The position numbers and the translations under genes are program-made. Shown here in pieces: positions 15,062-63,560 of a DNA stretch of 64,000 bases (the first letter of the stretch is position 1; each line of letters opens with the position of its first letter). Under the pieces are notes generated by a model that had not been told where the DNA came from, searched no databases, and was given only the letters and a program-made list of their open reading frames with translations. Source of the stretch: Branchiostoma floridae (Eukaryota > Chordata > Leptocardii > Amphioxiformes > Branchiostomatidae); assembly GCF_000003815.2 (NCBI RefSeq), contig NC_049995.1, positions 3,216,788 through 3,280,787 of the forward strand, given 5' to 3'.

Positions 15062-15069
15062 TCTGTGTG
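15062..15069 (+). repeat. Left 8-bp target-site duplication of the giant foldback element
   Basis: TCTGTGTG directly precedes the terminal ACCAGGCTGAAG and is repeated exactly at 29787-29794. Confidence 0.85.
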
Positions 15070-15365
15070 ACCAGGCTGAAGTTGGCCGCCGATTGGGCCG
15101 CCGATTCGTAGCCGCCGATTGGGCCGCCGATTCGTCATTAGACAAAACATAGCATCCGATTCAGACCCCGATTCGAAGAAACTAAAAATTCCTAATTTCC
15201 GTTAAAAGCTTAAATAAATATCAAGCACAGCTGGATATTGTCTATTACCAACCAATATAGGCAAATATAAACATAAATTATAACAAAAAGTAGAAAATCA
15301 ACGATTAAGCGCAAATAATAGGCCTAATCAGCAGCCACTGTCTTCAGCTTGGTCTAACGTTAGCT
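15070..15365 (+). repeat. Left terminal module of the giant element
   Basis: A non-tandem end module of about 295 bp with GCCGCCGATT repeats, GACAAAACATAGCATCCGAT, and the inner boundary CAGCTTGGTCTAACGTTAGC. Diverged copies recur inside the arrays at about 18350-18620, 18740-18950, 21440-21720, 21835-22045 and 24400-24560. Confidence 0.85.
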
Positions 15366-18300
15366 GCCACACTTCTTCTAGAGCAAACTGCTACTTATCT
15401 AAACGTGGCCCGTGAACTTGTAAGACGAATTAAGATAGCGTATACCCTTAGGTAGTCAATACAAGTGTCAAATATTACGGGCCAGATTTAATTAATAAAC
15501 TAGAGCGTAATTAACTAACACGAAATATGCAAGCAAAGGGGCGCCAAAATCGGCTTTCATACGGCTTCTAGAGCAAACTGCTACTTATCTAAACGTGGCC
15601 CGTGAACTTTTAAGACGAATTCAGATAGCGTATATCATAACGTATACAAAACAAGTGTCAAATCTTACGGGCCGGGTTTAATTAATGATCTACAAGGGAA
15701 TTAATTAATAGGAAATGCGCATGCAAAGGGGCGCTAAAATCGGCTTTCATACGGCTTCTAGAGCAAACTGCTACTTATCTAAACGTGGCCCGTGAGCTTT
15801 TAAGACGAATTAAGATAGCGTACATCATAACGTATACAATACAAGTGTCAAATCTTACGGGCCAGATTTAATCAATGAACTACAAGGGAATTAATTAATA
15901 GGAAATGCGAAAGCAAAGTGGCGCTAAAATCGGCTTTCATACTGCTTCTAGAGCAAACTGCTACTTATCTAAACGTGGCCCTTGAACTTTTAAGACGAAT
16001 TGAGATAGCATATATCATAACGTATTCGATACAAGTGTCAAATCTTACGGGCCAGATTTAATTAATGATCTACAAGGGAATTGATTAATAGGAAATGCGC
16101 AAGCAAAGGGGCGCTAAAATCGATTGCCATACGACTTCTAGAGCAAACTGCTACTTATCTAAACGTGGCCCGTGAACTTTTAAGACGAATTTAGATAGCG
16201 TATACCATAACGTATTCAATACAAGTATCAAATTTAACGGGCCGGATTTGATTAATGATTTACAAGGGAATTAACCAATAGGAAACACGCAAGCAAAGGG
16301 GCGCTAAAATCGGCTTTCATACGACTTCTAGAGCAAACTGCTACTTATCTAAACGTGGCCCGTGAATTTTTAAGATGAATTTAGATAGCGTATACGCTAA
16401 GGTATTCAATACAAGTGTCAAATCTTACGGGCCGGATTTAATTAATGATCTACAAGGGAATTAACCAATAGGAAACACGTAAGCAAAGGGGCGCTAAAAT
16501 CGGCTATCATACGGCTTCTAGAGCAAACTGCTACTTATCTAAACGTGGCCCGTGAACTTTTAAGACGAATGTAGACAGCGTATATCATAACGTATTCAAT
16601 ACAAGTGTCAAATTTTACGGGCCGGATTTAATTAATGAACTACAAGGGAATTAACTAATAGGAAATACGCAAGCAAAGGGGCGCTGAAATCGGCTATATT
16701 ATACGGCTTCTAGAGCAAACTGCTACTTATCTAAACGTGGCCCGTGAACTTTTAAGACGAATTGAGATAGCGTATACCCCAACGTATTCAATACAAGTGT
16801 CAAATCTTACGGGCCGGATTTAATTAATGAACTAGAGCGTAATTAACTAATAGGAAATGCACAGGCCAGGGGCGCTAAAGTCGGCTTTTATAGGACTTCT
16901 AGAGCAAACTGCTACTTATCTAAACGTGGCCCGTGAATTTTTAAGATGAATTTAGATAGCGTATACTCTAAGGTATTTAAAACAAGTGTCAAATCTTACG
17001 GGCCGGATTTAATTAATGATCTACAAGGGAATTAACCAATAGGAAATACGCAAGCAAAGGGGCGTTAAAATCGGCTTTCATACGGCTTCTAGAGCAAACT
17101 GCTACTTATTTAAACGTGGCCCGTCAACTTGAAGACGAATTGAGATAGCGTATATCATAACGTATTCAATTCAAGTGTCAAATCTAACGGGCCGGATTTA
17201 ATTAATGAACTAGACCGTAATTAACTAATAGGAAATGCACAAGCAAGGGCGCTAAAGTCGGCTTTCATACGACTTCTAGAGCAAACTGCTACTTATCCAA
17301 ACGTGGCCCTTGAACTTTTAAGACGAATTGAGATAGCATATATCATAACGTATTCGATACAAGTGTCAAATCTTACGGGCCAGATTTAATTAATGATCTA
17401 AAAGGGAATTGATTAATAGGAAATGCGCAAGCAAAGGGGCGCTAAAATCGATTGCCATACGACTTCTAGAGCAAACTGCTACTTATCTAAACGTGGCCCG
17501 TGAACTTTTAAGACGAATTTAGATAGCGTATACCATAACGTATTCAATACAAGTATCAAATTTACCGGCCGGATTTAATTAATGGACTAGAGGGGAATTA
17601 ACTGATAGGAAATACGCAAGCGAATGGGTGCTAAAATAGGCTGCCATACGGCTTCTAGAGCAAAGTGCTACTTATCCAAACGCGGCCCGTGAACTTGTAA
17701 GGCGAATTAAGATAGCGTATACCCTAACTTATTCAAAACAAGTGTCAAATCTTACGGGCCGGATTTAATTAATGATCTACAAGGGAATTAACCAATAGGA
17801 AACACGCAAGCAAAGGGGCGCTAAAATCGGCTTTCATACGGCTTCTAGAGCAAACTGCTACTTATCTAAACGTGGCCCGTGAACTTTTAAGACGAATGTA
17901 GACAGCGTATATCATAATTTATTCAATACAAGTGTCAAATTTTACGGGCCGGATTTAATTAATGAACTACAAGGGAATTAACTAATAGGAAATACGCAAG
18001 CAAAGGGGCGCTGAAATCGGCTATTATACGGCTTCTAGAGCAAACTGCTACTTATCTAAACGTGGCCCGTGAACTTTGAAGACGAATTGAGATAGCGTAT
18101 ACCCCAACGTATTCAATACAATTGTCAAATCTTACGGGCCGGATTTAATTAATGAACTAGACCGTAATTAACTAATAGGAAATGCACAGGCAAGGGGCGC
18201 TAAAATCGGCTTTTAAAGGACTTCTAGAGCAAACTGCTACTTATCCAAACGTGGCCCGTGAATTTTTAAGATGAATCTAGATAGCGTATACCCTAAGGTA

Positions 18301-21300
18301 TTCAATACAAGTGTTAAATCTTACGGACCGGATTTAACTAATGAACAATAGTTGTAGGCGACGATCATAGGCTAGCCGCCGATTCGTTATTAGACAAAAC
18401 ATAGCATCCCGTTCAGACGCCCATTCGAAGAAAGCAAAAAAAATCCTCATTTCGTTGAAAATCTTGAAAAAAATATCAATAACTGCTGAATATTGTCTAT
18501 TACTACCCAATATATGGTTATATAAACATAAGTAATAACAGAAAGTATCATGTCAACGATTAAACACAAATATCAGGCCCCATTGACGACCAAGGCTTCA
18601 GCCTGGTCTGAAATCGGAATCTGTCACTTATTTAAACGTGGCCCGTGAGTTTTTAAGCCAAATTTAGAAAGCGCATACCCTAAGGTATTCAATACAAGTG
18701 TTAAATCTTACGGGCCGGATTTAATTAATGAACTATTGCTGTAGGCGACGACCCAGCCGCCGATTCAAAATTAGAGAAAACATAGCATTCTATTCAGACT
18801 CCCATTCGAAGAAACCAAACAATTCCTGCTCATTTCCTTTAAAAGCTAGAACGGATATCAAGAACTGCTGTTTATTGTCTATTACTATACTACCCAATGT
18901 ATGTATATAGACATATAGATAATACCGGAAAGTATTATATTAACGATTAAAGGGCCAGATTTAATTAATGATCTACAAGGGAATTAACCAATAGGAAACA
19001 CGAAAGCAAAGGGGCGCTAAAATCGGCTTTCATACGGCTTCTAGAGCAAACTGCTACTTATCTAAACGTGGCCCGTGAACTTTTAAGACGAAAGTGGGCA
19101 GCGTATATCATAACGTATTCAATACAAGTGTCAAATCTTACGGGCCGGATTTAATTAATGAACTACAAGGGAATTAACTAATAGGAAATACGCAAGCAAA
19201 GGGGCGCTGAAATCGGCTATTATACGGCTTCTAGAGAAAACTGCTACTTATCTAAACGTGGCCCGTGAACTTTTAAGACGAATTGAGATAGCGTATACCA
19301 TAACGTATTCAATACAAGTATCAAATTTACCGGCCGGATTTAATTAATGGACTAGAGGGGAATTAACTGATAGGAAATACGCAAGCGAATGGGTGCTAAA
19401 ATAGGCTGCCATACGGCTTCTAGAGCAAAGTGCTACTTATCCAAACGCGGCCCGTGAACTTGTAAGGCGAATTAAGATAGCGTATACCCTAACTTATTCA
19501 AAACAAGTGTCAAATCTTACGGGCCGGATTTAATTAATGATCTACAAGGGAATTAACCAATAGGAAATACGCATGCAAAGGGGCGCTAAAATCGGCTTTC
19601 ATACGACTTCTAGAGCAAACTGCTACTTATCTAAACGTGGCCCGTGAATTTTTAAGATGAATTTAGATAGCGTATACTCTAAGGTATTCAATACAAGTGT
19701 CAAATCTTACGGGCCGGATTTAATTAATGAACTACAAGGGAATTAACTAATAGGAAATACGCAAGCAAAGGGGCGCTGAAATCGGCTATTATACGGCTTC
19801 TAGAGAAAACTGCTACTTATCTAAACGTGGCCCGTGAACTTTTAAGACGAATTGAGATAGCGTATACCCCAACGTATTCAATACAAGTGTCAAATCTTAC
19901 GGGCCGGATTTAATTAATGATCTACAAGGGAATTAACCAATAGGAAATACGCATGCAAAGGGGCGCTAAAATCGGCTTTCATACGACTTCTAGAGCAAAC
20001 TGCTACTTATCTAAACGTGGCCCGTGAATTTTTAAGATGCATTTAGATAGCGTATACTCCAAGGTATTCAATACAAGTGTCAAATCTAACGGGCCGGATT
20101 TAATTAATGATCTACAAGGGAATTAACCAATAGGAAACACGCAAGCAAAGGGGCGCTAAAATCGGCTTTCATACGGCTTCTAGAGCAAACTTCTACTTAT
20201 CTAAACGTGGCCCGTGAACTTTTAAGACGAATGTAGACAGCGAATATCATAACGTATTCAATACAAGTGTCAAATTTTACGGGCCTGATTTAATTAATGA
20301 ACTAGACCGTAATTAACTAATAGGAAATGCACAGGCAAGGGGCGCTAAAGTCGGCTTTTATAGGACTTCTAGAGCAAACTGCTACTTATCCAAACGTGGC
20401 CCGTGAATTTTTAAGATGAATTTAGATAGCGTATACTCTAAGGTTTTAAAAACAAGTGTCAAATCTTACGGGCCGGATTTAATTAATGATCTACAAGGGA
20501 ATTAACCAATAGGAAACACGCAAGCAAAGGGGCGCTAAAATCGGCTTTCATACGGCTTCTAGAGCAAACTGCTACTTATCTAAACGTGGCCCGTGAACTT
20601 TGAAGACGAATTGAGATAGCGTATATTATAACGTATTCAATTCAAGTGTCAAATCTAACGGGCCGGATTTAATTAATGAACTAGACCGTAATTAACTAAT
20701 AGGAAATGCACAAGCAAGGGCGCTAAAGTCGGCTTTCATACGACTTCTAGAGCAAACTGCTACTTATCCAAACGTGGCCCGTGAATTTTTAAGATGAATT
20801 TAGATAGCGTATACTCTAAGGTATTCAATACAAGTGTCAAATCTTACGGGCCGGATTTAATTAATGATCTACAAGGGAATCAACCAATAGGAAACACGCA
20901 AGCAAAGGGGCGCTGAAATCGGCTATTATACGGCTTCTAGAGCAAAATGCTACTTATCTAAACGTGGCCTGTGAACTTTTAAGACGAATGTAGGCAGCGT
21001 ATATCATAACGTATTCAATACAAGTGTCAAATTTTACGGGCCGGATTTGATTAATGAACTACAAGGGAATTAACTAATAGGAAATACGCAAGCAAAGGGG
21101 CGCTGAAATCGGCTATATTATACGGCTTCTAGAGCAAACTGCTACTTATCTAAACGTGGCCCGTGAACTTTTAAGACGAATTGAGATAGCGTATACCCCA
21201 ACGTATTCAATACAAGTGTCAAATCTTACGGGCCGGATTTGATTAATGAACTAGACCGTAATTAACTAATAGGAAATGCACAGGCAAGGGGCGCTAAAAT

Positions 21301-22880
21301 CGGCTTTTAAAGGACTTCTAGAACAAACTGCTACTTATCCAAACGTGGCCCGTGAATTTTTAAGATGAATCTAGATAGCGTATACCCTAAGGTATTCAAT
21401 ACAAGTGTTAAATCTTACGGACCGGATTTAACTAATGAACAATAGTTGTAGGCGACGATCATAGGCTAGCCGCCGATTCGTTATTAGACAAAACATAGCA
21501 TCCCATTCAGACGCCCATTCGAAGAAAGCAAAAAAAATCCTCATTTCGTTGAAAATCTTGAAAAAAATATCAATAACTGCTGAATATTGTCTATTACTAC
21601 CCAATATATGGTTATATAAACATAAGTAATAACAGAAAGTATAATGTCAACGATTAAACACAAATATCAGGCCCCATTGACGACCAAGGCTTCAGCCTGG
21701 TCTGAAATCGGAATCTGTCACTTATTTAAACGTGGCCCGTGAGTTTTTAAGGCAAATTTAGAAAGCGCATACCCTAAGGTATTCAATACAAGTGTTAAAT
21801 CTTACGGGCCGGATTTAATTAATGAACTATTGCTGTAGGCGACGATCCAGCCGCCGATTCAAAATTAGAGAAAACATAGCATTCTATTCAGACTCCCATT
21901 CGAAGAAACCAAACAATTCCTGCTCATTTCCTTTAAAAGCTAGAACGGATATCAAGAACTGCTGTTTATTGTCTATTACTATACTACCCAATGTATGTAT
22001 ATAGAAATATACATAATACCGGAAAGTATTATACTAACGATTAAAGGGCCAGATTTAATTAATGATCTACAAGGGAATTAACCAATAGGAAACACGCAAG
22101 GAAAGGGGCGCTAAAATCGGCTTTCATACGGCTTCTGGAGCAAACTGCTACTTATCTAAACGTGGCCCGTAAACTTTTAAGACGAATTAAGATAGCGTAT
22201 ACTCTAACGTATTCAATACAAGTTTCAAATTTTATACAGGCCAGATTTAATTAATGAACTACAGGACAATTAATTTATAAGAAATACGCAAGCAAAGGGG
22301 CGCTAAAATCGATTGCCATACGACTTCTAGAGCAAACTGCTACTTATCTAAACGTGGCCCTTGAACTTTTAAGACGAATTTATATGGCGTATACCCTAAC
22401 GTATCCAATACAAGTATCGAATCTTACGGGCCAGATCTAATTAATGAACTACAGGGCAATCAACTAATAAGAAATACGCAAGCAAAGGGGCGCTAAAATA
22501 GATTGCCATACGACTTCTAGAGCAAACTGCTACTTATCTAAACGTGGCCCTTGAACTTTTAAGACGAATTTATATGGCGTATACCCTAACGTATTCAATA
22601 CAAGTATCGAATCTTACGGGCCAGATTTAATTAATGAACTACAGGGCAATCAACTAATAAGAATTACGCAAGCAAAGGGGCGCTAAAATCGATTGCCATA
22701 CGACTTCTAGAGCAAACTGCTACTTATCCAAACGTGGCCCGTGAACTTTTAAGACGAACTTAGATAGCGTATACTCTAAAGTATTCAATACAAGTATCAA
22801 ATCTTACTGTCCAGATTTGATTAATGAACTATAGCTGTAGGCGACGATCTAGCCGCCGATTCGTGATTAGACAAAACTTA
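15366..22880 (+). repeat. Left-arm satellite array, about 190-bp monomers
   Basis: The monomer starts CTTCTAGAGCAAACTGCTAC, then TAAACGTGGCCCGTGAAC, CAATACAAGTGTCAAATCTT, ACGGGCCGGATTTAATTAAT and CAAGCAAAGGGGCGCTAAAA. Successive starts at 15561, 15751, 15941 and 16131 fix the 190-bp period. GGCCCGT and ACGGGCC inside each unit form an inverted pair about 75 bp apart. Confidence 0.92.
18960..22050 (+). repeat. Second copy of a 3,094-bp higher-order repeat
   Basis: Landmarks at 18182, 18342 and 18728 recur at 21276, 21436 and 21822, each exactly 3,094 bp later and almost identical, showing a block duplication of monomers plus internal end modules. Similarity drops after about 22160. Confidence 0.85.
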
Positions 22881-24390
22881 GCATCCTAAGAATCCCTCTG
22901 AAACAACAGTGACAAACAGCAACCTACGTATAACATGTGTTACCGTGATCTTAACAAAATGAAGGATGATTTACAAACTTTCATTTTCAGTTTAGAGTAA
23001 AACTTTGTTTCAGAAAACAAGCTATATGTGTCCCCTCGGCACCTTTCTTGGCATTCAGGCGTAAAATTTCATTACATCAGTGACATGCGGAAAGGCGCCT
23101 CATGCCTCTTCTTTCCGTTACTGGTTGTGTAGGATAATAATGGGTTACAGATGTGGAGTGTCTCTCCCTTATAATCAGGACAACATGCAAACAAAGTAAT
23201 GTGCGTTCCCTCGTCAAGAGCACCTTTGCCTTATGTGTTTTAGTTTTTATTGGTCCTTGTTGCCTAAAGTTTACAAGGGCCAATATCATGAAAGCCAACC
23301 GGTTCAAGGGAAAGTCAAGCTCGTTGCTTGTCAGTTAAGGTGGGCTCCCACTGCACTCGCGTCACGCTTGCGTCGCTTCGGGGTTCGTTCATTGTGTCAC
23401 TGTTGTGTTATTTTCGCCGATTTTCTGTTGCGCTCCCACTGACAGGGGTCACTGTTGCGTTTCTAGACTAAATGGACAGGTTACCGGAAGTCGCAGCGTT
23501 GTCAATGTATGAAAAATCACTGTAAAATGATGAAAATCCCTAAAAATGCGATGAAACAACTTCCATTGTGATGATGCTTATGCTTATGAATGTAACTTAT
23601 GTTATATGATAACCTTGAAAGACTTTTACAGTAAAAGAAGTAACCCAAATGAATGGACACGAACCATATACCAGATTTGACTCCATCATCGGCGCTTATG
23701 TGTTTTGCAACAAGTAAGTGTAATGGTGTGTGTTAATTTGCATATTTCACAAATGAAAAATCTTGATATTTCCTACGTTTTAATAGGAAATAGACAAAAT
23801 ATAACCGTGATACTGTTGAAGGCATGTCGGCGTCACTGTTGTGTCACTGTTGTGTTACTCTTGGGTCACTGTTGTAACTGAAAAACTGCTGTAAAATGAT
23901 ATCCAAAATGTATCCAAAATAGCTTTTCAATAATAAAATGATGTTTACTTTTGATACTTGGTGCAAAATAGACAAAATATAACCTTGATACTGTTGAAGA
24001 CATGTTGGCGTCACTATTGTGTCACTGTTGTGTTACTCTTGGGTCACTGTTGTGTCACTCTTGGGTCACTGTTGGGGCATCTTGCCACTTGCGTTTTTTT
24101 TAAAACTTCCCAAAAAACGTCGCGCTTGCTTGTGTCACCTCTAGGTTGCNNNNNNNNNNNNNNNNNNNNNNNNNNNNNNNNNNNNNNNNNNNNNNNNNNN
24201 NNNNNNNNNNNNNNNNNNNNNNNNNNNNNNNNNNNNNNNNNNNNNNNNNGCAGAGGGGACGCGAGCGAACCAAGAGGCGACACAAGCAAACCGAGAGGAG
24301 ACGCAAGCAAGCGCGACGTCTTACGGGAAGTCCAAAAAAAACGCAAGTGGCAAGATGCCCCAACAGTGACCCAAGAGTGACAGTTTGCTC
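22881..24390. other. Non-satellite insert in the core of the giant element
   Basis: Bounded by two copies of GATTAGACAAAACTTAGCAT (near 22866 and 24667). It contains repeated GTGTCACTGTTGTGTTACTC blocks and an inverted repeat whose arms (about 24050-24149 and 24250-24381) flank the N gap. No transposase frame was recognised. Confidence 0.6.
24150..24249. other. Assembly gap (100 N)
   Basis: Exactly 100 N, probably of unknown true length, placed at the turn of a hairpin with about 20-bp subrepeats. Confidence 0.95.
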
Positions 24391-24705
24391 TAGAAGCCGT
24401 ATGCTGTTGGCGACGATCCAACCGCCGATTCAAAATTAGAGAAATCGTAGCATAGTATTCAGACGCCCATTCGAAGAAACGAAACAATTCCTCATTTCCT
24501 TTAAAAGCTAGAACGGATATCAAAAACTGCTGTTTATTGTCTATTACTACCCAAGACGAATTTACAAAGCGCATATCTTAACGTACTTGATAAAAGTATC
24601 TAATCTTTTGGGCCGGACTTAATTAATGAACTATAGTTGTAGGCGACGATTTCGCCGCCGATTCGTGATTAGACAAAACTTAGCATCCTAAGAATCCCTT
24701 GACCG
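24391..24705 (+). repeat. Internal copy of the end module
   Basis: GTTGGCGACGATCCAACCGC onward matches the 18728 and 21822 modules, then ends with a partial monomer and CTTAGCATCCTAAGAATCCC. Confidence 0.7.
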
Positions 24706-25440
24706 GCCGAAAGGCCTTCATGACTGGAAGTCGTTCCGGCAGGTTTGTGATAACTCACCATGGCTATTGGTAATTGGCGTGTAAATAGCCAATTACACGC
24801 CCAGTGTTTCTAACCTCCCCTTTGACAACTGTCCCCTGCCGCGACATTGGAGAGGGTTGGGTGGTCGCCAGATGTGACAGACAGATAGACTTATTTATTA
24901 GAAAGAATTCATTAGCTGAATGCCTAGTTGGCGAACATATATAGCAATATCATTACAGTTATGAGTTAGGTATTAGGTGTGGGGTCTTTACCATGGATTC
25001 ATGCAACTGAATTAGAAACTTGAAAGACATCTACAACTCAGTACGTCTGACGTTGTGTTGTGACAGCCAGGAGAGGAAATTGGATCTTGCTGAGACAAAA
25101 CTCCCCAGAGTTGTGGGCAGAATGGGCAATGCGTTTCCTGTGTGTTTCAAAGTCGCTCGAAAAACATATAGCAGGACGGACTTGAATTATATGCCACTAT
25201 ACTATTCACTCTTACTGCGATGTATTTTATATCAGATAAAAATATCAAAATTACATTCTCACAAGACTGTTAGATTTCTATGGCCGTCTGTAAACAGGCA
25301 TTTTTTGTACTATAATGATGCTTTTGAAGACAAATTATTTATAGACCTTGACCTTAAGACCTTGGCTCTTGTGAATACACCTTGTCTTGCCATAAAAAAA
25401 GCCCAGCTGTACGGGCTGCTACTGCTATGACGATTTTAGC
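24706..25440. other. Unique segment at the turning point between arms
   Basis: Separates forward from reverse arrays. A 136-codon open stretch at 25020-25430 has no ATG before codon 35 and matches no family I recognise. An inverted repeat around GGCGTGTAAATAGCCAATTA (24776-24800) is present. Confidence 0.5.
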
Positions 25441-28400
25441 CCCGGCCCTCCTTTGCTTGCGCATTTCCTCGCATTGTTAGTAAATTCCACTGTAGTTCAT
25501 TAATTAAATCCGGCCCGTAAGATTTCATACTTGTATTAAATACGTTATTGTATACGCTATCTAAATTCGTCTTCAAAGTTCACGGGCCGCGTTTAGATAA
25601 GTGGCAGATTGCTCTAGAAGCCGACAGCTGATGTCAGACCAGGTTGAAGTCGGTCGCCGATTAGGCCTACATTTGTGCTTTAATCGTTGATAAAATACTT
25701 TCTGGTATTATCTATATTTCTATATACATACATTGGGTAGTAATAGACAATAAACAGCAGTTCTTGATATCCGTTCTAGCTTTTAAAGGAAATGAGGAAT
25801 TGTTTGGTTTCTTCGAATGGGAGTCTGAATAGAATGCTATGTTTTCTCTAATTTTGAATCGGCGGCTGGATCGTCGCCTACAGCAATAGTTCATTAATTA
25901 AATCCGGCCCGTAAGATTTAACACTTGTATTGAATACCTTAGGTTATGCGCTTTCTAAATTTGCCTTAAAAATTCACGGGCCACGTTTGAATAAGTGACA
26001 GATTCCGATTTCAGGCCAGGCTGAAGCCTTGGTCGTCAATGGGGCCTGATATTTGTGTTTAATCGTTGACATAATACTTTCTGTTATTACTTATGTTTAT
26101 ATAACCATATATTGGGTAGTAATAGACAATATTCAGCAGTTATTGATATTTTTTTCAAGATTTTCAACGAAATGAGGATTTTTTTTTTCTTTCTTCGAAT
26201 GGGCGTCTGAATGGGATGCTATGTTTTGTCTAATAACGAATCGGCGGCTAGCCTATAACTATTGTTCATTAGTTAAATCCGGCCCGTAAGATTTAACACT
26301 TGTATTGAATACCTTAGGGTATACGCTATTTAGATTCATCTTAAAAATTCACAGGCCACGTTTGGATAAGTAGCAGTTTGTTCTAGAAGTCCTATAAAAG
26401 CCGATTTTAGCGCCCCTTGCCTGTCCATTTCCTATTAGTTAATTACGGTCTAGTTCATTAGTTAAATCCGGCCCGTAAGATTTGACACTTGTATTGAATA
26501 CGTTATGATGTACGCCATCTCAATTCGTCTTAAAAATTCACGGGCCACGTTTGGATAAGTAGCAGTTTGCTCTAGAAGTCCTATAAAAGCCGACTTTAGC
26601 GCCCCTTGCCTGTGCATTTCCTATTAGTTAATTACGGTCTAGTTCGTTGATTAAATCCGGCCCGTAAAATTTGACACTTGTATTGAATACGTTGGGGTAT
26701 ACGCTATCTCAATTCGTCTTAAAAGTTCACGGGCCACGTTTAGATAAGTAGCAGTTTGCTCTAGAAGCCGTATAATAGCCGATTTCAGCGCCCCTTTGCT
26801 TGCGTATTTCCTATTAGTTAATTCCCTTGTAGTTCATTAATTAAATCCGGCCCGTAAAATTTGACACTTGTATTGAATACGTTATGATATACGCTGCCTA
26901 CATTCGTCTTAAAAGTTCACGGGCCACGTTTAGATAAGTAGAAGTTTGCTCTAGAAGCCGTATGAAAGCCTATTTTAGCGCCCCTTTGCTTGCGTGTTTC
27001 CTATTGGTTAATTCCCTTGTAGATCATTAATTAAATCCGGCCCGTAAGATTTGACACTTGTATTGAATACGTTGGGGTATACGCTATCTCAATTCGTCTT
27101 AAAAGTTCACGGGCCACGTTTAGATAAGTAGCAGTTTTCTCTAGAAGCCGTATGAAAGCCGATTTCAGCGCCCCTTTGCTTGCGTATTTCCTATTAGTTA
27201 ATTCCCTTGTAGTTCATTAATTAAATCCGGCCCGTAAGATTTGACACTTGTATTGAATACGTTATGATATACGCTGCCCACTTTCGTCTTAAAAGTTCAC
27301 GGGCGACGTTTAGATAAGTAGCAGTTTGCTCTAGAAGCCGTATGAAAGCCGATTTTAGCGCCCCTTTGCTTTCGTGTTTCCTATTGGTTAATTCCCTTGT
27401 AGATCATTAATTAAATCTGGCCCTTTAATCGTTAATATAATACTTTCCGGTATTATCTATATTTCTATATACATACATTGGGTAGTATAGTAATAGACAA
27501 TAAACAGCAGTTCTTGGTATCCGTTCTAGCTTATAAAGGAAATGAGCAGGAATCGTTTGGTTTCTTCGAATGGGAGTCTGAATAGAATGCTATGTTTTCT
27601 CTAATTTTGAATCGGCGGCTGGGTCGTCGCCTACAGCAATAGTTCATTAATTAAAGTCGGCCCGTAAGATTTAACACTTGTATTGAATACCTTAGGGTAT
27701 GCGCTTTCTAAATTTGGCTTAAAAACTCACGGGCCACGTTTAAATAAGTGACAGATTCCGATTTCAGACCAGGCTGAAGCCTTGGTCGTCAATGGGGCCT
27801 GATATTTGTGTTTCATCGTTGACATAATACTTTCTGTTATTACTTATGTTTATATAACCATATATTGGGTAGTAATAGACAATATTCAGCAGTTATTGAT
27901 ATTTTTTTCAAGATTTTCAACGAAATGAGGATTTTTTTTGCTTTCTTCGAATGGGCGTCTGAATGGGATGCTATGTTTTGTCTAATAACGAATCGGCGGC
28001 TAGCCTATGTATGTCGCCTACAACTATTGTTCATTAGTTAAATCCGGCCCGTAAGATTTAACACTTGTATTGAATACCTTAGGGTATACGCTATCTAGAT
28101 TCATCTTAAAAATTCACGGGCCGCGTTTGGATAAGTAGCAATTTGTTCTAGATGTCCTTTAAAAGCCGATTTTAGCGCCCCTTGCCTGTGCATTTCCTAT
28201 TAGTTAATTACGGTCTAGTTCATTAATGAAATCCGGCCCGTAAGATTTGACAATTGTATTGAATACGTTGGGGTATACGCTATCTCAATTCGTCTTAAAA
28301 GTTCACGGGCCACGTTTAGATAAGTAGCAGTTTGCTCTAGAAGCCGTATAATAGCCGATTTCAGCGCCCCTTTGCTTGCGTATTTCCTATTAGTTAATTC

Positions 28401-29490
28401 CCTTGTAGTTCATTAATTAAATCCGGCCCGTATAATTTGACACTTGTATTGAATACGTTATGATATACGCTGCCTACATTCGTCTTACAAGTTCACAGGC
28501 CACGTTTAGATAAGTAGAAGTTTGCTCTAGAAGCCGCATGAAAGCCGATTTTAGCGCCCCTTTGCTTGCGTGTTTCCTATTGGTTGATTCCCTTGTAGAT
28601 CATTAATTAAATCCGGCCCGTAAGATTTGACACTTGTATTGAATACGTTGGGGTATACGCTATCTCAATTCGTCTTAAAAGTTCACGGGCCACGTTTAGA
28701 TAAGTAGCAGTTTGCTCTAGAAGCCGTATGAAAGCCGATTTTAGCGCCCCTTTGCTTGCGCATTTCCTATTAATTAATTCCCTTGTAGATCATTAATTAA
28801 ACCCGGCCCGTAAGATTTGACACTTGTTTTGTATACGTTATGATATACGCTATCTGAAGTCGTCTTACAAATTCACGGGCCACGTTTAGATAAGTAGCAG
28901 TTTGCTCTAGAAGCCGTATGAAAGCCGACTTTAGCGCCATTGCTTGTGCATTTCCTATTAGTTAATTACGGTCTAGTTCATTAATTAAATCTGGCCCGTT
29001 AGATTTGACACTTGAATTGAATACGTTATGATATATGCTATCTCAATTCGTCTTAAAAGTTCACGGGCCACGTTTAGATAAGTAGCAGTTTGCTCTAGAA
29101 GCCGTATGAAAGCCGATTTTAGCGCCACTTTGCTTTCGCATTTCCTATTAATTAATTCCCTTGTAGTTCATTGATTAAATCCGGCCCGTAAGATTTGACA
29201 CTTGTATTGTATACGTTATGATGTACGCTATCTTAATTCGTCTTAAAAGCTCACGGGCCACGTTTAGATAAGTAGCAGTTTGCTCTAGAAGCCGTATGAA
29301 AGCCGATTTTAGCGCCCCTTTGCTTGCATATTTCGTGTTAGTTAATTACGCTCTAGTTTATTAATTAAATCTGGCCCGTAATATTTGACACTTGTATTGA
29401 ATACCTAAGGGTATACGCTATCTTAATTCGTCTTACAAGTTCACGGGCCACGTTTAGATAAGTAGCAGTTTGCTCTAGAAGAAATGTGGC
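25441..29490 (-). repeat. Right-arm satellite array, inverted, about 190-bp monomers
   Basis: Same monomer in reverse complement (GCGCCCCTTTGCTTGCG, TTAATTAAATCCGGCCCGTA, GTTCACGGGCCACGTTTAGA, GTAGCAGTTTGCTCTAGAAG). Reversed internal end modules lie at about 25680-25890, 26000-26250, 27420-27640 and 27760-28030. Confidence 0.9.
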
Positions 29491-29786
29491 AGCTAACGTT
29501 AGACCAAGCTGAAGACAGTGGCTGCTGATTGGGCCTATTATTTGCGCTTAATCGTTGATTTCCTACTTTTTGTTATAATTTATGTTTATATTTGCCTATA
29601 TTGGTTGGTAATAGACAATATCCAGCTGTGCTTGATATTTATTTAAGCTTTTAACGGAAATTAGGAATTTTTAGTTTCTTCGAATCGGGGTCTGAATCGG
29701 ATGCTATGTTTTGTCTAATGACGAATCGGCGGCCCAATCGGCGGCTACGAATCGGCGGCCCAATCGGCGGCCAACTTCAGCCTGGT
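29491..29786 (-). repeat. Right terminal module of the giant element
   Basis: Reverse complement of the left terminal module with about three substitutions, ending AACTTCAGCCTGGT. Confidence 0.88.
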
Positions 29787-29794
29787 TCTGTGTG
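29787..29794 (+). repeat. Right 8-bp target-site duplication
   Basis: TCTGTGTG, identical to 15062-15069. Confidence 0.85.
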
Positions 29795-30424
29795 TCGCAG
29801 CAAAAAGTAGCGTGCTGCCTCGGGAGGCACATTTCCTCGATAATTTATCAATTTTAAGAGTATTTACCTTCTTGAAGGGTAAACTATATCGTCGATAGGG
29901 TAAGTATAGTGCTAGGGGTGACTTGTTAACATTCTAGTGCATGAATGGTGAAAATACGGGCATGTTTTTCTGTGTGTTGCCATTTTGTTCAAAGGGGGAG
30001 GGGGGCACTCTTACTAGTACTTTTCCTCGTAAAAAATTAGCGTCTGTTACTACTATGTAGCAGTTAGATGTAGCAGATGTTTCTGCATTCATAACTGGGT
30101 GATTCAGTTCTTCTTTCCAGATAATGGTGTAAGAATACACCTAGTTCTTCAATGATAAGTGCTTATGTAAAGTGTAATTTGTTTGTCATTATTTCAACAA
30201 AAAGATAGTTACAAAAATCGTTATCTTTCTCCATACTCTTCCTGAAATCCAACTTGGGGGTTTAATCAAGAGGAAACCTCCTTGATCTTAACTTGAGCTT
30301 ACGACTTTTATCATCATACTAAAGCATGTGGTAGTACTTCAAACACCAAGTCTTTCAATGAGTTTTCATCAAGAGAAGAGAGGTCCTTGAAAGCTCCAGG
30401 TCTGATGAAAGCTCCTTGGCCATT
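29795..30424. other. No supported gene
   Basis: Short unique stretch between the giant foldback element and the TTA-flanked element; nothing recognisable. Confidence 0.45.
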
Positions 30425-30427
30425 TTA

Positions 30428-31160
30428 GGCCCCGTTCATGATGCAAAAAATGAAACGGTTCTATCGGTTACTATCGGTTAGACCAGCTGAAACGGATAAG
30501 TTTTGTCATCATGAACGCTCCGAAACGGATCTGAAGCGATAGGAAACGTTTTTTTCGGAACCTCCTTGCGAGGTAGTATTGAAACGGTTTCTTCCTTATC
30601 TGGAATTGCGAATTTGCATCATGAACGCAAAAGCGGCGTGATCCGTTTTACATCGGGGCATGTGCGTTCATATTTGGTGGCGCCACGGGGGAAAAGTACA
30701 ATTTTTAATCTGTCATTCGGGTGTTTCGGCCGCGTTTTCAGTCGTAAAATTCGTTTTTATTATCAGGCCACCTCCTTGTCGACTGAGGAGCCAGCAGTCC
30801 TGATATCGCAAGGGGAATGTGTCAGGAGATCCAGTGGAGATGTCATAGCATGGCATATATCGGGACCACAATGTTTTCAGAGGCATTTCCAAGGTCATAA
30901 CAGAACCCAGCTTCCAATTCAGTAAGACATTAGTTCAATTTCGATCAAAGACCAATAATCTGACACGGAAGTACAAGTTTAGGCAAGATCACAACAACCT
31001 CAGGGGTCAGAGGTCGCATTACCATGCCTTTTCAAGGAACTGAAACGGTTTGCAAGTTTGCATCATGAACGCAAAATGCAAACCGTTTCCTGTCGTTTGC
31101 TGTCGGATTTCCAGGCCTAACCGATAGAACCATTTCATTTTTTGCATCATGAACGGGGCC
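30428..31160. mobile_element. 733-bp PIF/Harbinger-like non-autonomous transposon
   Basis: The ends GGCCCCGTTCATGATGCAAA and the reverse complement TTTGCATCATGAACGGGGCC are flanked by TTA on both sides (30425-30427 and 31161-31163). Subterminal CATCATGAAC motifs recur near 30505, 30616 and 31061. The open frame inside (30566-30925) resembles no transposase I know. The right end lies about 100 bp before the POLR2K start codon. Confidence 0.85.
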
Positions 31161-36288: not shown

Positions 36289-37260
36289 CTAAGCTGTAAT
36301 AGTGCTTACACTTGAGCCGGTGGTACATGTGCTAGTACTGGTTATTCTTTCCCTAGTCACCGTCTTACTCTGTTCGGACGTTGGATGAACCTTTGTGCTC
36401 ATTTTCTTCAGTGCTTTCGACATCATTGTGAACACCATTCCAAGAAACGCCATTCCAAACCCGGTCCAAAGCAAGATGAAGACCCTATAGAATACCAGAT
36501 TAACAGAATACTCCCTGTCAATCCGTTCCCCGGTTACGTAGTCCCCGAAACCGACTGTACTGAGGGTAATAAAGACGAAGTAGAAAGAGTCTCCGTAAGT
36601 CCAATCTTCCACGATGTGTACCATCCAAGTAGGGATGACGAAAAAGACGACCATCCCGACAGCAACACGACTGGCGTTGCAACTCCTCTCAACCCACTGC
36701 CGATTCCATTGTGGCCGCTTTTCCGATATCTTCTTCGCCAAAAACCGGGAAAAGTTCCTCATCCTTTCGGCGATGGCTGAGACGGTTAAGGCGGTTAGAG
36801 GGATCCCTAGCGTTGCGTACGCTACGCAGAAGGCTTTCCCTGCGGTGGTTACCGGAGAGAAGTGCCCGTACCCGATCGTAGTCAACAGCGCTCCGCTAAT
36901 CCCTAACGCACCGTCCATTCCCCACCGCTTTCGAGAACTCTTTTCCTCGGTACTATCTGGATGCAGCCCCCACGATTGAGCCTTAAAAAATAAATCAAGC
37001 ATTCCATGTAACTCTTCCTGTGTGAGCACTACAACAGGTGACGATTCGTCAGAATTGAAACATTGTGAACTGTTCTGCCATCTTCTGGAAAGGTTTCGTT
37101 TGAACTCCCAGAATTCGATACGCATTTTTTCCTCCGCAGGTGACTCCAGTGCGTGAAAGATAACGGCTCCGAAAATCAAATACACGAAGAAAGCCAGTAG
37201 TAAGCCGGTGGTGACAAAGTTTTTCAGTTTGTGCAGCATGACTTGAGAAATAGGAGCCAT
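36289..37260 (-). CDS. Two-pore-domain potassium (K2P) channel, TREK/TALK-like, single exon
   Basis: Background K+ channel of the plasma membrane; two such subunits make one pore. An uninterrupted 323-aa reading frame starts at ATG 37260 (A at -3, G at +4; an in-frame GTG 72 nt upstream is rejected as start). Order: TM1 about residues 16-36; extracellular cap with C67, the likely inter-subunit disulfide position, and NLS/NSS glycosylation sequons; pore 1 filter TIGYG about 128-132; TM2 about 141-163; TM3 about 198-219; pore 2 filter TVGFG about 235-239 followed by DYVTG; TM4 about 256-279; then a short Ser/Thr-rich tail. The GFGDYV context and the GKAFCVAYATLGIPL TM2 resemble TREK and TALK channels; the exact subfamily is not settled. 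Oddity: no introns, although animal K2P genes commonly carry one near the first GYG. Length and motifs look intact and functional. Confidence 0.93.
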   Translation of the reverse strand: MAPISQVMLHKLKNFVTTGLLLAFFVYLIFGAVIFHALESPAEEKMRIEFWEFKRNLSRRWQNSSQCFNSDESSPVVVLTQEELHGMLDLFFKAQSWGLHPDSTEEKSSRKRWGMDGALGISGALLTTIGYGHFSPVTTAGKAFCVAYATLGIPLTALTVSAIAERMRNFSRFLAKKISEKRPQWNRQWVERSCNASRVAVGMVVFFVIPTWMVHIVEDWTYGDSFYFVFITLSTVGFGDYVTGERIDREYSVNLVFYRVFILLWTGFGMAFLGMVFTMMSKALKKMSTKVHPTSEQSKTVTRERITSTSTCTTGSSVSTITA

Positions 37261-38154
37261 ATTGTAGTATAGTCTGTGTCTGTTGCGCTTCTTTCTCGAC
37301 GTTTCTCCCTGTTTGTTGCGGCCTGTGTCCACGTTTGGGGGTGCCTTGTGGTATAGGACCTGGTGTTGTTACTGTACGTACAGTTTGCACGGAATGTCTC
37401 CTTGACTCTTAGTTGTGTTGACGACTTTTTCTTCTACCCACAGTCTCCTAGGTACCGCTTCGTAGCTATTGTTGTTGTTGCGATTTTTGTCAACGGTTCT
37501 CCCTGTTTGTTCCGTTTCTCTACTATTTCCTATGACTGGGTCAGATGCCTCCTTGATTCCTATAACTAGCAGTATTTGCGCTGACGATTTTTCTATCCCA
37601 TGCATCCACAGTAGTTAGCGTTCATCCGCACTTTCTTTCCCCTGTTCACATCGGAGTTGCTAGCTGTTGATGACTCACCTTGTATCGTCAGTACTTCAAA
37701 CGCTTCTGTGTGTTTTTACACAAAAAGCCACCCAAAGGTTTCTCTTTGAATAAATGGATTAGTTCATAAAACTCATTACTCACATTTGGATACCTAATCA
37801 TGCTATTGCCTTCAAGTAATTCACCTGATGAATTATTGATCTGTCTCGCCCAACCAGATAAAAAAGAAGTAAAACAACAAGTTTGTATTTGCCATTGTTT
37901 CCTTGGTGATATCGTATTCAGCATCACGAAAGCATTAAGATCTCATGATTCGACTATTGTCTGATGGCGTCTTTTTTTTCAAGAAGTAATTCTATCTGGT
38001 AAGAAAATCTGATTAATTATTTAGAAGTGGCAAAGACAATCAATACAACAATATGGGGAATTATGGAGTGAAATGATGATTGAAATATTATACACCTGTT
38101 TATCGTGGGATATTTAATATGTGTGTAGAGATCATACTCCCTCACCAACCAATC

Positions 38155-41103: not shown

Positions 41104-44100
41104 ATGACTGATTATCCAGGGCCACCTCAGGAACCGTTTCAGCCAAAAGGTAGTTATTTTATTTTGTTTATTTATTTATCTATTTATTGGTTTGGCTGTT
41201 CAGAATGCACAGCCAGGGCTGCCCAACAAGCCTAGGCTATTACAAAGGGCTTAAGCCCTGCTGACAAAAACTGAGACAAAATGTACTACTACTAAGTAGT
41301 TCTTTTTTATCCGTGGGGATTACCTAGATCCGTTGTTTTTAGGGATGTCGACATGCAGTGGGTTCAATCAATATTGTCAAAATATTACAGTTTGAAGCAA
41401 CCATTCTTATCTTGAATTTGCTGTCCCTTGACGGTTTATAAACCAATATAAAGCAACAATTTTCTTTCTATCAGACTGAATGATTCTGTCCTTTTTGACA
41501 TTCTTTAATGCAGTTACTACTCCGTCGGAGAGAGGCGTACTGGCCGTTCTTAAACAAATTGAGAACAACCAGCGGATCAGCAGTAGCGAAGTCTGGCACA
41601 AAAAACGAGCAGACGGAAAGAAGGTACACCTGCTTTAGATGTCATAATTTTGATATAGTGAAAGCGACCATTAAATGCTTGCTATCATTTAGTCAAAAAG
41701 GGGAGGGTGGTACACACGTGTCAGACGTAATGTGTCAGTTATTGTGAAGATCGCCATAGAGGAGGCTGATATTACCGTGATATAATTCTCTAAGCAGATC
41801 TGTCAGGGGCAAGGACAGATTCCAAAGGGGTAACGGTAAGGATTAGGGTTAGGGTTAGGTTTAGGGTTATGGTTAGATGACTAGGGTTAAGTTAGGTTAG
41901 GGTTAGTTGTAGGGTTAGGTTAGGTGTAGGGCTAGGGCTAGGGCTAGGGCTAGGGCTAGCTATACGGGGCCAATAGAAACTAAGCCCTTGGATACTGTCG
42001 TTGCCGCCAGTATATCCATTTGGAGACGAATGTTTCTGTGTCTTTCTAGGTTCGTGTTCTCATCAAGGCTTCCATCGTCTCTCTAACAGAGATCGACACC
42101 GTGAAGCAGTCATTCTCGGCTGAAGTCTGGCTCTCAGCCTACTTCAAGGAACCTCTGCTCAAGGGGAAGAAGGACAGAGAGGTAAGAGACAAGACACAAT
42201 TAATGTTATAAACTTAAATTGCCACACTTAAAAGGCTGAGCTGCCTTTATCTGGCTTTCACATATACAACAAGAAGCCTCTACTGAATTCTAAAATAGAG
42301 AACGTAGAAAATCTTTTCCTTTGAACTATTATGCCATGTCCAGGTAACTTACAGATTGGTTAGGTCTACAACTTTGCTATTTTCATACATATATCATTAT
42401 GTCGTAGACAAGCAATTACCATGAACTGATCAGGTTTCTTTAACCAACCAACATGGCGTATACTACATGACGTCATAATGTCATGTGATTAACACTTTCA
42501 TTTCTTTTTAAAATCAGGAGGTTGACTGGGCTGACCAATGGGATCCACGGATTGTGCTTTTCAACGCTGTAACGGTCGATAAAGAAGAGATCAAACACAA
42601 CCTGATCCTGTCCGACATGGACGACATTCCCATCGTACAGATCACCAGGAGGGTGCAGGCAACCTTCAAGGAGCCGATGAAGCTGGCAAACTTTCCCTTC
42701 GACTACCAGGTTAGCATTTTTTTATCGTAACCTTAATTAAACTTCAGCCTGCTATAATTATTTACTTAGGTAACCGTAAGAGGTATATAGGCAGCAGTGA
42801 GAAGGTCAGATAGTCAAAGACACTCCTTGTAATGCTAGTTCACATTCATCTGTTCGGTAACCTATATCCGTTGCTTTTCAAAAACAGCATATTTAGGCAC
42901 ATCAAGTCGAAGCTAGGGTGGTAGTTTTAAACTGCAATATCATGAGAGTATTGCAATTTGAAACTAACATTCATCATTAAAGTGAATCATTATTATCCCC
43001 CAATACCCTGTTTTTAATCGCAACGGATATAGGTTACCCAATGAATAAAGGTGAACTAGCGTTAACATCTATTATCATAATACCGGCCGTTTACGACGAT
43101 TTCTCTAGCCATACTGATTTGACAAATTGTCAATGCATCATTTTCTCCAGTTACATGTTGCTGTTATAGGTTACCCTTGCCACTTCTTCTGTGTAACTTT
43201 TCTGCCACTCTTGTCCTGCTAAAAGCGTAATATCGTAATTGTAACACGCCGTGGAATTACACGGCGAACGGGCGCGTGGTTGGGAGGGGGTACAAAATAC
43301 CGGCCGGAAGAAACACGGCACAATTAACTGTCGCTATGTACCTTTATACATCCTCCATGTTCCTTCCTTTTCTGTTTTAAGTAAATGCATAAAACATAAA
43401 CCTGCATGAGCATACAAAATGTCATGAGAAAACGGACATATACTGTCAAGAATTTTCATTTAACTTGCGTCCGCCACAACCGCTATGACGTACAGTGTAA
43501 CACTTCACTGCTAGCGTAGATATAAAAATGGCGGGAAAATGGCTGCGTACGTTCAATTTTGCCCATTCAGTCGTAGATCCGGGCTATTATGCAATGGTTC
43601 TTCACACTTTTACATGAGTTGTAGGTCGATCACCAACAGAAATTCAAGATTGCTGTTGAATCATGTTCGTCTTGTGCCGTGAGCATGTGTAATTATGATC
43701 TACAAATCTGGCAATGAATGTGACAGTGTGTTCGTCCCACGACGAGCTGCCTGTCCTGAAAAAGATACTGAAAACTTTTCGCCTTGTTGTCTTCGAATGC
43801 ATTGTAATCGATGCTTTGTAAATGATGTATTGGACACCTAGATGTCTGAAGTGTGCATACCTCAGAAATAACTATTGTTGCACGTGTAGATCTCTTTAAA
43901 TTCCATTATTTTTTATCGGCCGGTATAAGTCTTACGGCCGGTATTATGCCAATGCATGTTAAGAGTTTAGGCAGAAAAAATAAGCATATTAGATACTAGT
44001 AGTTGTAAGGAGTCTGTGTTGGTAGATTTGACATCACATGACAGAAGTATTGGGCTAGTTGTACAATATGAGGAAGGCTGACCGCTCAAAGGAACAGACA

Positions 44101-58109: not shown

Positions 58110-58410
58110 AGGGATTAACTAAGATTAGAACAGTATATAGCTAATTAATAGCGAAAAAACGTGTTCAGAAGAGAAACTGTGCCAATTTGAATGACACAAA
58201 AAATAGCGCCGTAAGAATTGTACATATAACGTTATATAGCTAACTTGTAGCGGAAAAAGTGTTTAGAAGACAAACTGTGTCAATTTGAATGACACATCTA
58301 AAGGACCGTTGTGCGCTGCATTAAGTGTATACAGCTAACTAATAGCGAAAAACGTGTTCAGAAGAGAAACTGTGTCAATTTGAATGACAGACTTACAGAA
58401 CAGTAAGAAC
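58110..58410 (+). repeat. Left fragment of the 89-bp palindrome array
   Basis: Three diverged units carrying GTGTTCAGAAGA, AACTGTGTCAATTTGAATGA and TAGCGAAAAACG. Cut off by the insertion that starts at 58411. Confidence 0.8.
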
Positions 58411-63300: not shown

Positions 63301-63560
63301 CTTAAAGCGAAAAGTGTATTCAGTAGACTACCTGTGTCAATTTGAATGACAGATTTATAGAAAAGTGCTGTAAGAACTGTATGTAGCGTAAAACGTGTTC
63401 AGGGGACCAACTGTGTCAATTTGCATGACATACTCACATTATAGCGCCGTAAAAACAGTACATAGCTAACCAATTTTTAAAAAAAAACGTGTTTAGGATA
63501 CAAAATGTGTCTATGTGAATGACACATTCATAGAACAGCGAGGTAAATTGATTTTGACGA
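60398..63560 (+). repeat. Main 89-bp tandem array with conserved palindrome
   Basis: Unit: AGCGCAATAAGAAATGTATA, AGCAAACTAATAGCGGAAAA, GTGTTCAGGAGACAAACTGT, TGTGTCAATTTGAATGACAC. Starts at 60481 and 60570 fix the period. Roughly 35 units; they become degenerate after about 62.7 kb but keep the palindrome. Confidence 0.92.

What the first reader, a model, noticed from the sequence alone, without database searches (positions are those of the whole stretch)
15062..29794. A 14.7-kb foldback transposon made of satellite arms, with exact 8-bp target duplication
Both ends, ACCAGGCTGAAG and its complement, abut identical TCTGTGTG octamers, so the whole satellite-filled block appears to have moved as one unit. 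The arms are not simple inverted repeats but long tandem arrays (about 190-bp monomers) capped by a distinct end module. Near-identity of the caps suggests recent insertion or ongoing homogenisation. Such an element could seed satellites at new sites, and the two arms could form a very large cruciform.
Basis: partly seen in the sequence, partly recalled or inferred. Interest (0 to 1): 0.9.

Follow-up and report, generated by a model that had tools for sequence, protein, structure and literature searches.

The report
Satellite-armed foldback transposon in amphioxus
A large block of mirrored satellite repeats, in what is very probably the amphioxus genome, is a real mobile element that inserted as one piece with an 8-base duplication, and its end modules also lie inside a second mobile family that inserts by different ends.

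Summary
Window 15070-29786 is bounded by inverted ACCAGGCTGAAG ends inside exact TCTGTGTG copies; both arms are ~190-bp tandem arrays behind near-identical 305-bp caps. The 14.7-kb length is nominal (100-N gap). Whole-unit insertion is supported: of seven facing end pairs on one contig, three carry exact, different 8-bp duplications and four do not. For one of the three, all 40 scored paralogous places span the insertion point; two read base by base hold one octamer. Monomers are closer to ones in other elements (mean best 2.4%) than to any in their own arm (5.9%), so arrays diversified before dispersal. No transposase was found in these elements; one relic with the same 38-bp end carries a decayed MULE transposase, suggesting a Mutator-type helper. 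New here: the cap is a MITE-like module that also lies, beside the same satellite, inside a second family with TACGAAGG ends (6-bp duplication exact in 9 of 10 pairs), so one set of arms seems to have been moved by two transposases using nested ends. Closest known: Drosophila Tetris, nematode Tm1.

The parts
15062..15069 (.). left target-site duplication TCTGTGTG
15070..15374 (+). left cap: outer end ACCAGGCTGAAGTTGGCCGCC..., MITE-like module whose inner inverted end (to 15353) is degenerate
15375..18346 (+). left satellite array, ~190-bp monomers (16 matches, the last one partial)
18375..18950 (+). internal diverged cap modules (18375-18609, 18756-18950) with a partial monomer between
18952..21440 (+). 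second left satellite block; part of a ~3.09-kb higher-order duplication (15859-19734 vs 18952-22831, 92.5%)
21469..22044 (+). internal diverged cap modules (21469-21703, 21835-22044) with a partial monomer
22046..22886 (+). third left satellite block and cap fragment 22837-22886
22887..25430 (.). centre: mostly non-satellite sequence, no transposase found, 139-aa frame 25011-25427 without Pfam match; contains the gap, cap fragments at 24422-24554 and 24639-24688 and a monomer fragment
24150..24249 (.). 100-N assembly gap, true size unknown
25431..26248 (-). inner right arm: monomer, cap modules 25625-25881 and 26043-26248, partial monomer
26264..27423 (-). right satellite block
27425..28000 (-). 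internal diverged cap modules (27425-27619, 27766-28000) with a partial monomer
28029..29481 (-). outer right satellite block
29482..29786 (-). right cap, 99.0% identical to the left cap
29787..29794 (.). right target-site duplication TCTGTGTG

Best explanation
This is one copy of a young, apparently non-autonomous foldback transposon family. SHOWN: its termini are ACCAGGCTGAAG; copies insert as a whole with an 8-bp target duplication; the ~190-bp satellite is internal cargo that was largely diversified before dispersal; the cap is a MITE-like module that also sits beside the same satellite in the arms of a second family ending in TACGAAGG, which makes 6-bp duplications. INFERRED: a Mutator-like (MULE) transposase supplied in trans recognises the outer ends of the two inverted caps and moves everything between them; arm length drifts by unequal exchange; the family arose when that transposase used caps nested in TACGAAGG-type arms and left the outer domain behind.
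For: Ends: 32 genome places match the 33-bp end (up to 3 mismatches; reversed-pattern control 0), 18 of them with at most 1 mismatch. In these 18, likeness stops at ACC and the 22-30 bases outside look unrelated by eye, except C1:2019753, which repeats this window's right flank. Duplications: TCTGTGTG here, TATCTTTC at C3:5636239-5644657, CCCACCCA at C3:16098444-16106389. Empty sites for the last: all 40 scored places (3028 first-look candidates) span the junction at 89-97% identity; two read base by base, on C8 and C1, have one CCCACCCA. Cargo: over 121 monomers of 5 elements the best match in another element averages 2.4%, the best in the own arm 5.9%, adjacent ones 13.4%; the 100 listed monomer places of 254 are in these elements. 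Second family: of 17 loci examined, 10 hold a complete pair, 9 with an exact 6-bp duplication and one with 5 of 6 letters; 17 of 17 intact cap modules lie within or beside its elements; the module-monomer junction is shared; its outer domain has no match in the window or the family-1 loci on hand. Helper: the C2:7779037 end shares 38 bp and has, 0.8 kb inward, a decayed MULE transposase (E 1.4e-26, 2 stops, to a 542-aa frame with PF10551 at 2.7e-12).
Against: Four of seven facing end pairs lack matching octamers. Three contain gaps, one of these with a misplaced contig; C153:5453-10758 has no gap inside and is a plain failure, though its two caps differ at 119 of 269 positions. Element labels do matter somewhat for monomers: 66 of 121 have their nearest relative in another element, below all 200 label shuffles (mean 83.9, minimum 67), so some amplification followed insertion. 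The MULE link rests on one relic, whose left end was not found in 8.4 kb. The open C11 MULE has neither end type within about 1 kb. MULEs mostly make 9-bp duplications (Tm1 passages); here 8. No empty site was found for this window's own insertion. The direction (family 1 from family 2) is not proven.
Confidence: 0.85

Rival explanations
1. The block is an ordinary satellite array that formed an inverted duplication in place; the matching octamers are chance.
For: The flanking octamer is GT-rich. Some arm material was duplicated locally (3.09-kb blocks), and monomers cluster mildly by element (66 of 121 nearest in another element against a shuffled mean of 83.9). Four of seven facing pairs have no matching octamer.
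Against: Exact different octamers at three sites (8e-5 each for random 8-mers), empty sites for one copy, the same sharp boundary in different flanks, and monomers shared across chromosomes.
Confidence: 0.03
2. It is a foldback element of another superfamily (P, hAT, Merlin: recalled as able to make ~8-bp duplications), and the MULE remnant at C2 is merely a neighbour.
For: An 8-bp duplication is not specific to MULEs. Galileo, a foldback-like element, belongs to the P superfamily (abstract starts). Only one relic links end and MULE, and its other end was not found.
Against: The MULE remnant reads inward from the shared 38-bp end, 0.8 kb from it. Most foldbacks are assigned to Mutator (PMC4079207 Discussion).
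Confidence: 0.25
3. The nested ends arose the other way round: an ACCAGG-ended foldback existed first, and TACGAAGG-type elements later captured its cap and monomer.
For: The module keeps both inverted ends in the second family, as an inserted MITE would (the search asked for both ends). Family 1 has more monomers per arm.
Against: No duplication is visible around the module inside the second family (my reading). The inner end of the cap is degenerate in family 1 (5-6 of 18 mismatches in 14 of 15 caps, unrecognised in 1), as expected of a derived cap that needs only its outer end.
Confidence: 0.3

Closest known systems
Tetris (Drosophila virilis), PMC4079207 (abstract, Results part 1 and Discussion part 1 read)
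   Same: Non-autonomous foldback; long inverted arms with an end domain and ~220-bp tandem repeats; 8-10 bp duplications; proposed Mutator superfamily; shares ends with a MITE (DAIBAM); no transposase found.
   Different: Tetris repeats also form free satellite arrays of up to 66 copies, whereas the 100 listed monomer places here are all inside elements. Tetris arms reach 1,735 bp, here about 4-8 kb as assembled. Its end domain shares 37 bp with its repeat; the best cap-monomer match here is 9 bp. Different organism; sequences not compared.
Tm1 Mutator/Foldback family (root-knot nematodes), PMC3169594 (passages found by term)
   Same: Composite inverted repeats, 8-10 bp (mostly 9) duplications in 45 of 53 elements, MITE-like members, MULE transposase in an autonomous member.
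   Different: Tm1 arms use ~14-bp motifs, not a ~190-bp satellite; a transposase-coding member is known there, none here.
Galileo (Drosophila), PMC4168063 and PMC3573991 (abstract starts in search listings)
   Same: Long internally repetitive inverted arms.
   Different: P superfamily; nothing about a second end type in what I saw.
Sea-urchin TU and Drosophila FB elements (structure recalled; foldbacks of both organisms are cited in PMC4079207)
   Same: Foldback arms with tandem repeats; TU recalled as having 8-bp duplications.
   Different: Shorter repeat units (recalled); sequences not compared.
Oyster satellite-like repeats carried by Helentrons, PMC7492417 (title and abstract start in listing)
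   Same: Dispersal of satellite-like arrays by a mobile element.
   Different: Helentrons; here inverted arms with a target-site duplication.

Membership tests
Foldback transposon (structural class) | long inverted arms built partly of tandem repeats | tested here: met
Foldback transposon (structural class) | several dispersed copies with the same termini | tested here: met
   18 ends with at most 1 mismatch on C1, C2, C3, C15, C17, C18 and C153; 13 caps differ by 0-6 of 305 (these include the C1:2019753 duplicate of this window's right cap)
DNA transposon with fixed-length target duplication | 8-bp duplication at insertions | tested here: met
   3 of 7 facing same-contig pairs exact; 4 not (three with gaps, C153 without); empty sites for one of the three
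Mutator-like (MULE) superfamily | MULE transposase encoded by, or linked to, elements with the same ends | tested here: inconclusive
   one relic with a 38-bp shared end and a decayed PF10551-type gene; the C11 MULE query finds nothing in the window or other loci on hand
Mutator-like (MULE) superfamily | 8-11 bp, usually 9-bp, duplication (range recalled; 8-10 for Tm1 and Tetris in papers seen) | tested here: met
   8 bp; compatible but not specific
Tetris family | sequence homology to Tetris | not tested
   no Tetris sequence was on hand
TACGAAGG-ended, 6-bp-duplicating family of the same genome | TACGAAGG terminal domain and 6-bp duplication | tested here: not met
   outer domain has no match in the window or family-1 loci on hand; duplication 8 bp, not 6

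The most novel reading that the evidence does not exclude
Terminus switching: one set of palindromic satellite arms carries two nested pairs of functional ends. An outer TACGAAGG pair is used by one transposase (6-bp duplications) and an inner pair, supplied by a MITE-like module, by another, probably MULE (8-bp). Use of the inner pair split off a new family that multiplied its internal satellite several-fold and spread it ready-made, while the inner copy of the module end decayed so that the cap can no longer leave on its own.
Probability: 0.5. Interest if true: 0.62.

Novelty: new variant of a known kind. Interest (0 to 1): 0.5.

Why it matters
It offers a testable case, probably in a chordate, of a satellite that lives inside a transposon: monomers in elements on different chromosomes resemble each other more than their neighbours do, so arrays were mostly carried and not regrown at each site. 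The nested ends with two duplication lengths suggest how non-autonomous elements change helper and found new families. Both points bear on the open question of where dispersed satellite arrays come from.

Tried and rejected
Autonomous partner: frames of at least 90 aa were listed for 19 loci, flanks included in most, and 10 of them scanned with Pfam; hits were C2H2 zinc-finger frames (two in L018), a RING/B-box frame (L021) and sub-threshold scraps in L019, no transposase; six frames had no hit. Other frames were not scanned. The 139-aa central frame is open in three copies, its 4 matches lie in these elements, and it has no Pfam match; 8 of 417 bases differ from the C3 copy, so I do not claim a gene. 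C11 MULE as direct partner: rejected, no matching ends within about 1 kb.

Solo cap MITE: not found, 17 of 17 intact modules lie in or beside TACGAAGG elements; that search demanded both intact 16-bp ends and a 215-245-bp spacing, so decayed solo copies would be missed. Cap-to-monomer homology as in Tetris: not found. Cross-scaffold pairing of C1:2052059 and C15:18348519 (TGAAAGGG and its complement CCCTTTCA): suggestive but not counted, their caps differ by 38 of 305. Rfam: nothing in the window. Amphioxus literature: searches (no paper with all four terms; listings only; one search showed 20 of 772) showed no description of this element; Repbase is not held, so it may be named there.
Full report
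What is there. The window is G000:C17:3216788-3280787 of a 513-Mb assembly in 431 contigs. I infer Branchiostoma floridae (19 chromosomes, shotgun assembly scaffolded by chromatin contacts; PMC7269912 passages); no call names the organism. Behind each end lies a 305-bp cap (99.0% identical to the other) and then an array of ~190-bp monomers. Diverged caps recur inside both arms. The centre (22887-25430) is mostly non-satellite and contains a 100-N gap lying in the loop of a small inverted repeat. AT skew changes sign between the arms, as expected for inverted copies.

Is it more than chance? Two random 8-mers of the window agree with probability 8e-5. The 33-bp end has 32 places in the genome with up to 3 mismatches and none for the reversed control. 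Eighteen have at most 1 mismatch. Of the other 14, 12 lie in loci that I read and each of these holds a TACGAAGG end, so I take them as inner ends of the module in the second family; two (on C19 and C33) were not read. Among the 18, likeness stops at ACC.

Target duplications. Seven left-right facing pairs lie on one contig. Three have exact octamers: TCTGTGTG (this window), TATCTTTC (C3:5636239-5644657) and CCCACCCA (C3:16098444-16106389); all three contain assembly gaps. Four do not match. C1:2019753-2030625 begins next to a 984-bp stretch that is 100% identical to this window's right flank, with a cap identical to this window's right cap, and is gapped: a duplicated or misplaced contig. C1:2030697-2052059 and C15:18283165-18348519 contain gaps. 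C153:5453-10758 has no gap inside and is a real miss, with caps differing at 119 of 269 aligned positions. For the unpaired ends no partner octamer beside an end was found in the fetched stretches.

Empty sites. Joined flanks (one octamer copy) of four sites were searched. All matches fall on the C3:16098444 site, and at each of the 40 scored places, of 3028 first-look candidates, the best match spans its junction; they are other copies of a repeat into which that element inserted. Two read base by base carry CCCTACCCACCCACCAAATATC with one octamer, which also excludes a 4-bp reading of this repetitive octamer. This window's own joined flank finds only its two flanks and the C1 duplicate, so its empty allele is untested. 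The other two joined flanks did not complete on their own.

The arrays are cargo. I compared 121 monomers from five elements (both arms of this one and of the two C3 copies, left arms of C17:14840810 and C18:12266304). The best match in another element averages 2.4% divergence (median 2.1%), the best in the own arm 5.9% (median 5.3%), adjacent monomers in the same arm 13.4%, a figure raised by partial monomers at block ends. Of 28 pairs of position-1 monomers, 21 differ by 0-2.6% and 7 by 6.8-8.5%; one search points to the left arm of the C3:16098444 copy as the odd one. Nearest-neighbour counts for arms (92 of 121 closer to another arm) lie within label shuffles (mean 97.8, range 82-109), so arm membership hardly matters. 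For elements they fall below all 200 shuffles (66 against mean 83.9, minimum 67), so some local duplication followed insertion. Of 254 monomer-core places in the genome, the 100 listed all lie in these elements; the other 154 were not listed.

Age and homogenisation. Thirteen caps differ by 0-6 of 305, as much between elements as within them (2-4 in three elements), so they show a young family, not arm-to-arm correction. This is below the 3.2-4.2% heterozygosity given for sequenced amphioxus (PMC12500494, abstract start in listing).

The second family. The cap is also found, at about 76-85% identity in the longest matches of the loci compared, in elements ending TACGAAGGACCATTGGGACAAAACCTG (122 ends with up to 2 mismatches). 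Their order is outer domain of short repeats, cap module, one to three monomers or parts, unique centre. The module there is bounded by inverted ACCAGGCTGAAGTTGG ends. Of 17 loci examined, 10 hold a complete pair in the expected order: 9 duplicate 6 bp exactly, one matches in 5 of 6 letters; five show one end, one shows none, and one has an inside-out pair. The cap-monomer junction is shared with this window, and the outer domain has no match in the window or in the family-1 loci on hand. In family 1 the inner module end is degenerate: 5-6 of 18 mismatches in 14 of 15 caps and unrecognised in one. The same kind of arm therefore carries two nested end pairs with different duplication lengths, which implies two transposases. 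This is the most interesting point and it was not in the finding.

Which transposase. No transposase was found in family-1 copies by the tests made: 10 frames against Pfam and the C11 MULE against the window and the loci on hand. The end at C2:7779037 matches 38 bp and then leads into a different interior with a decayed gene (56% identity over aa 170-307, two stops, E 1.4e-26) related to an open C11 frame that carries the MULE domain (PF10551, E 2.7e-12). Its left end was not found in 8.4 kb, so the link is a single, one-sided case. It agrees with the usual assignment of foldbacks to Mutator (PMC4079207 Discussion) and with Tm1 (PMC3169594 passages).

Known or new. Tetris is the same kind of thing: end domain, ~220-bp tandem repeats in inverted arms, 8-10 bp duplications, no transposase found. 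This element is a different family in another organism, with longer arms as assembled, no free arrays among the listed places, and nested ends of two types. I file it as a new variant of a known kind.

Limits. One assembly, with misplaced pieces around these elements; monomer counts and arm lengths are provisional; genome letters were rationed, so several single ends were not followed to their partners.

Noticed in passing
window 60420-63547 (and 58133-58389): An 89-bp satellite array of about 33 copies and a short array of similar-looking 95-bp units 2 kb away.
   Followed up: no
window 41835-41959: Interstitial GGTTAG (telomere-type) hexamer array, about 21 copies, 74% matches.
   Followed up: no
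window 36292-37368 (-): 359-aa open frame with two Ion_trans_2 stretches (PF07885), looks like a two-pore potassium channel exon (the two-pore reading is mine).
   Followed up: partly
window 24053-24382: The assembly gap lies in the loop of a small inverted repeat (49 bp at 100%, 53 bp at 83%), perhaps another nested element that stopped the assembly.
   Followed up: partly
L060 295-1920 (G000:C11:20227894-20229519): 542-aa open MULE transposase-like frame without matching inverted ends within about 1 kb; possibly domesticated.
   Followed up: partly
L020 1278 and 5808 (G000:C174): An inside-out pair of TACGAAGG ends: a right end and, 4.5 kb on, a left end, both flanked by CATTGA; a duplicated haplotype or a shared site.
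   Followed up: no
G000:C1:2018769-2019752 against window 29787-30770: 984 bp of this window's right flank occur at 100% identity on C1 next to an identical cap, while the arm beyond differs: a misplaced duplicate contig or allele.
   Followed up: partly
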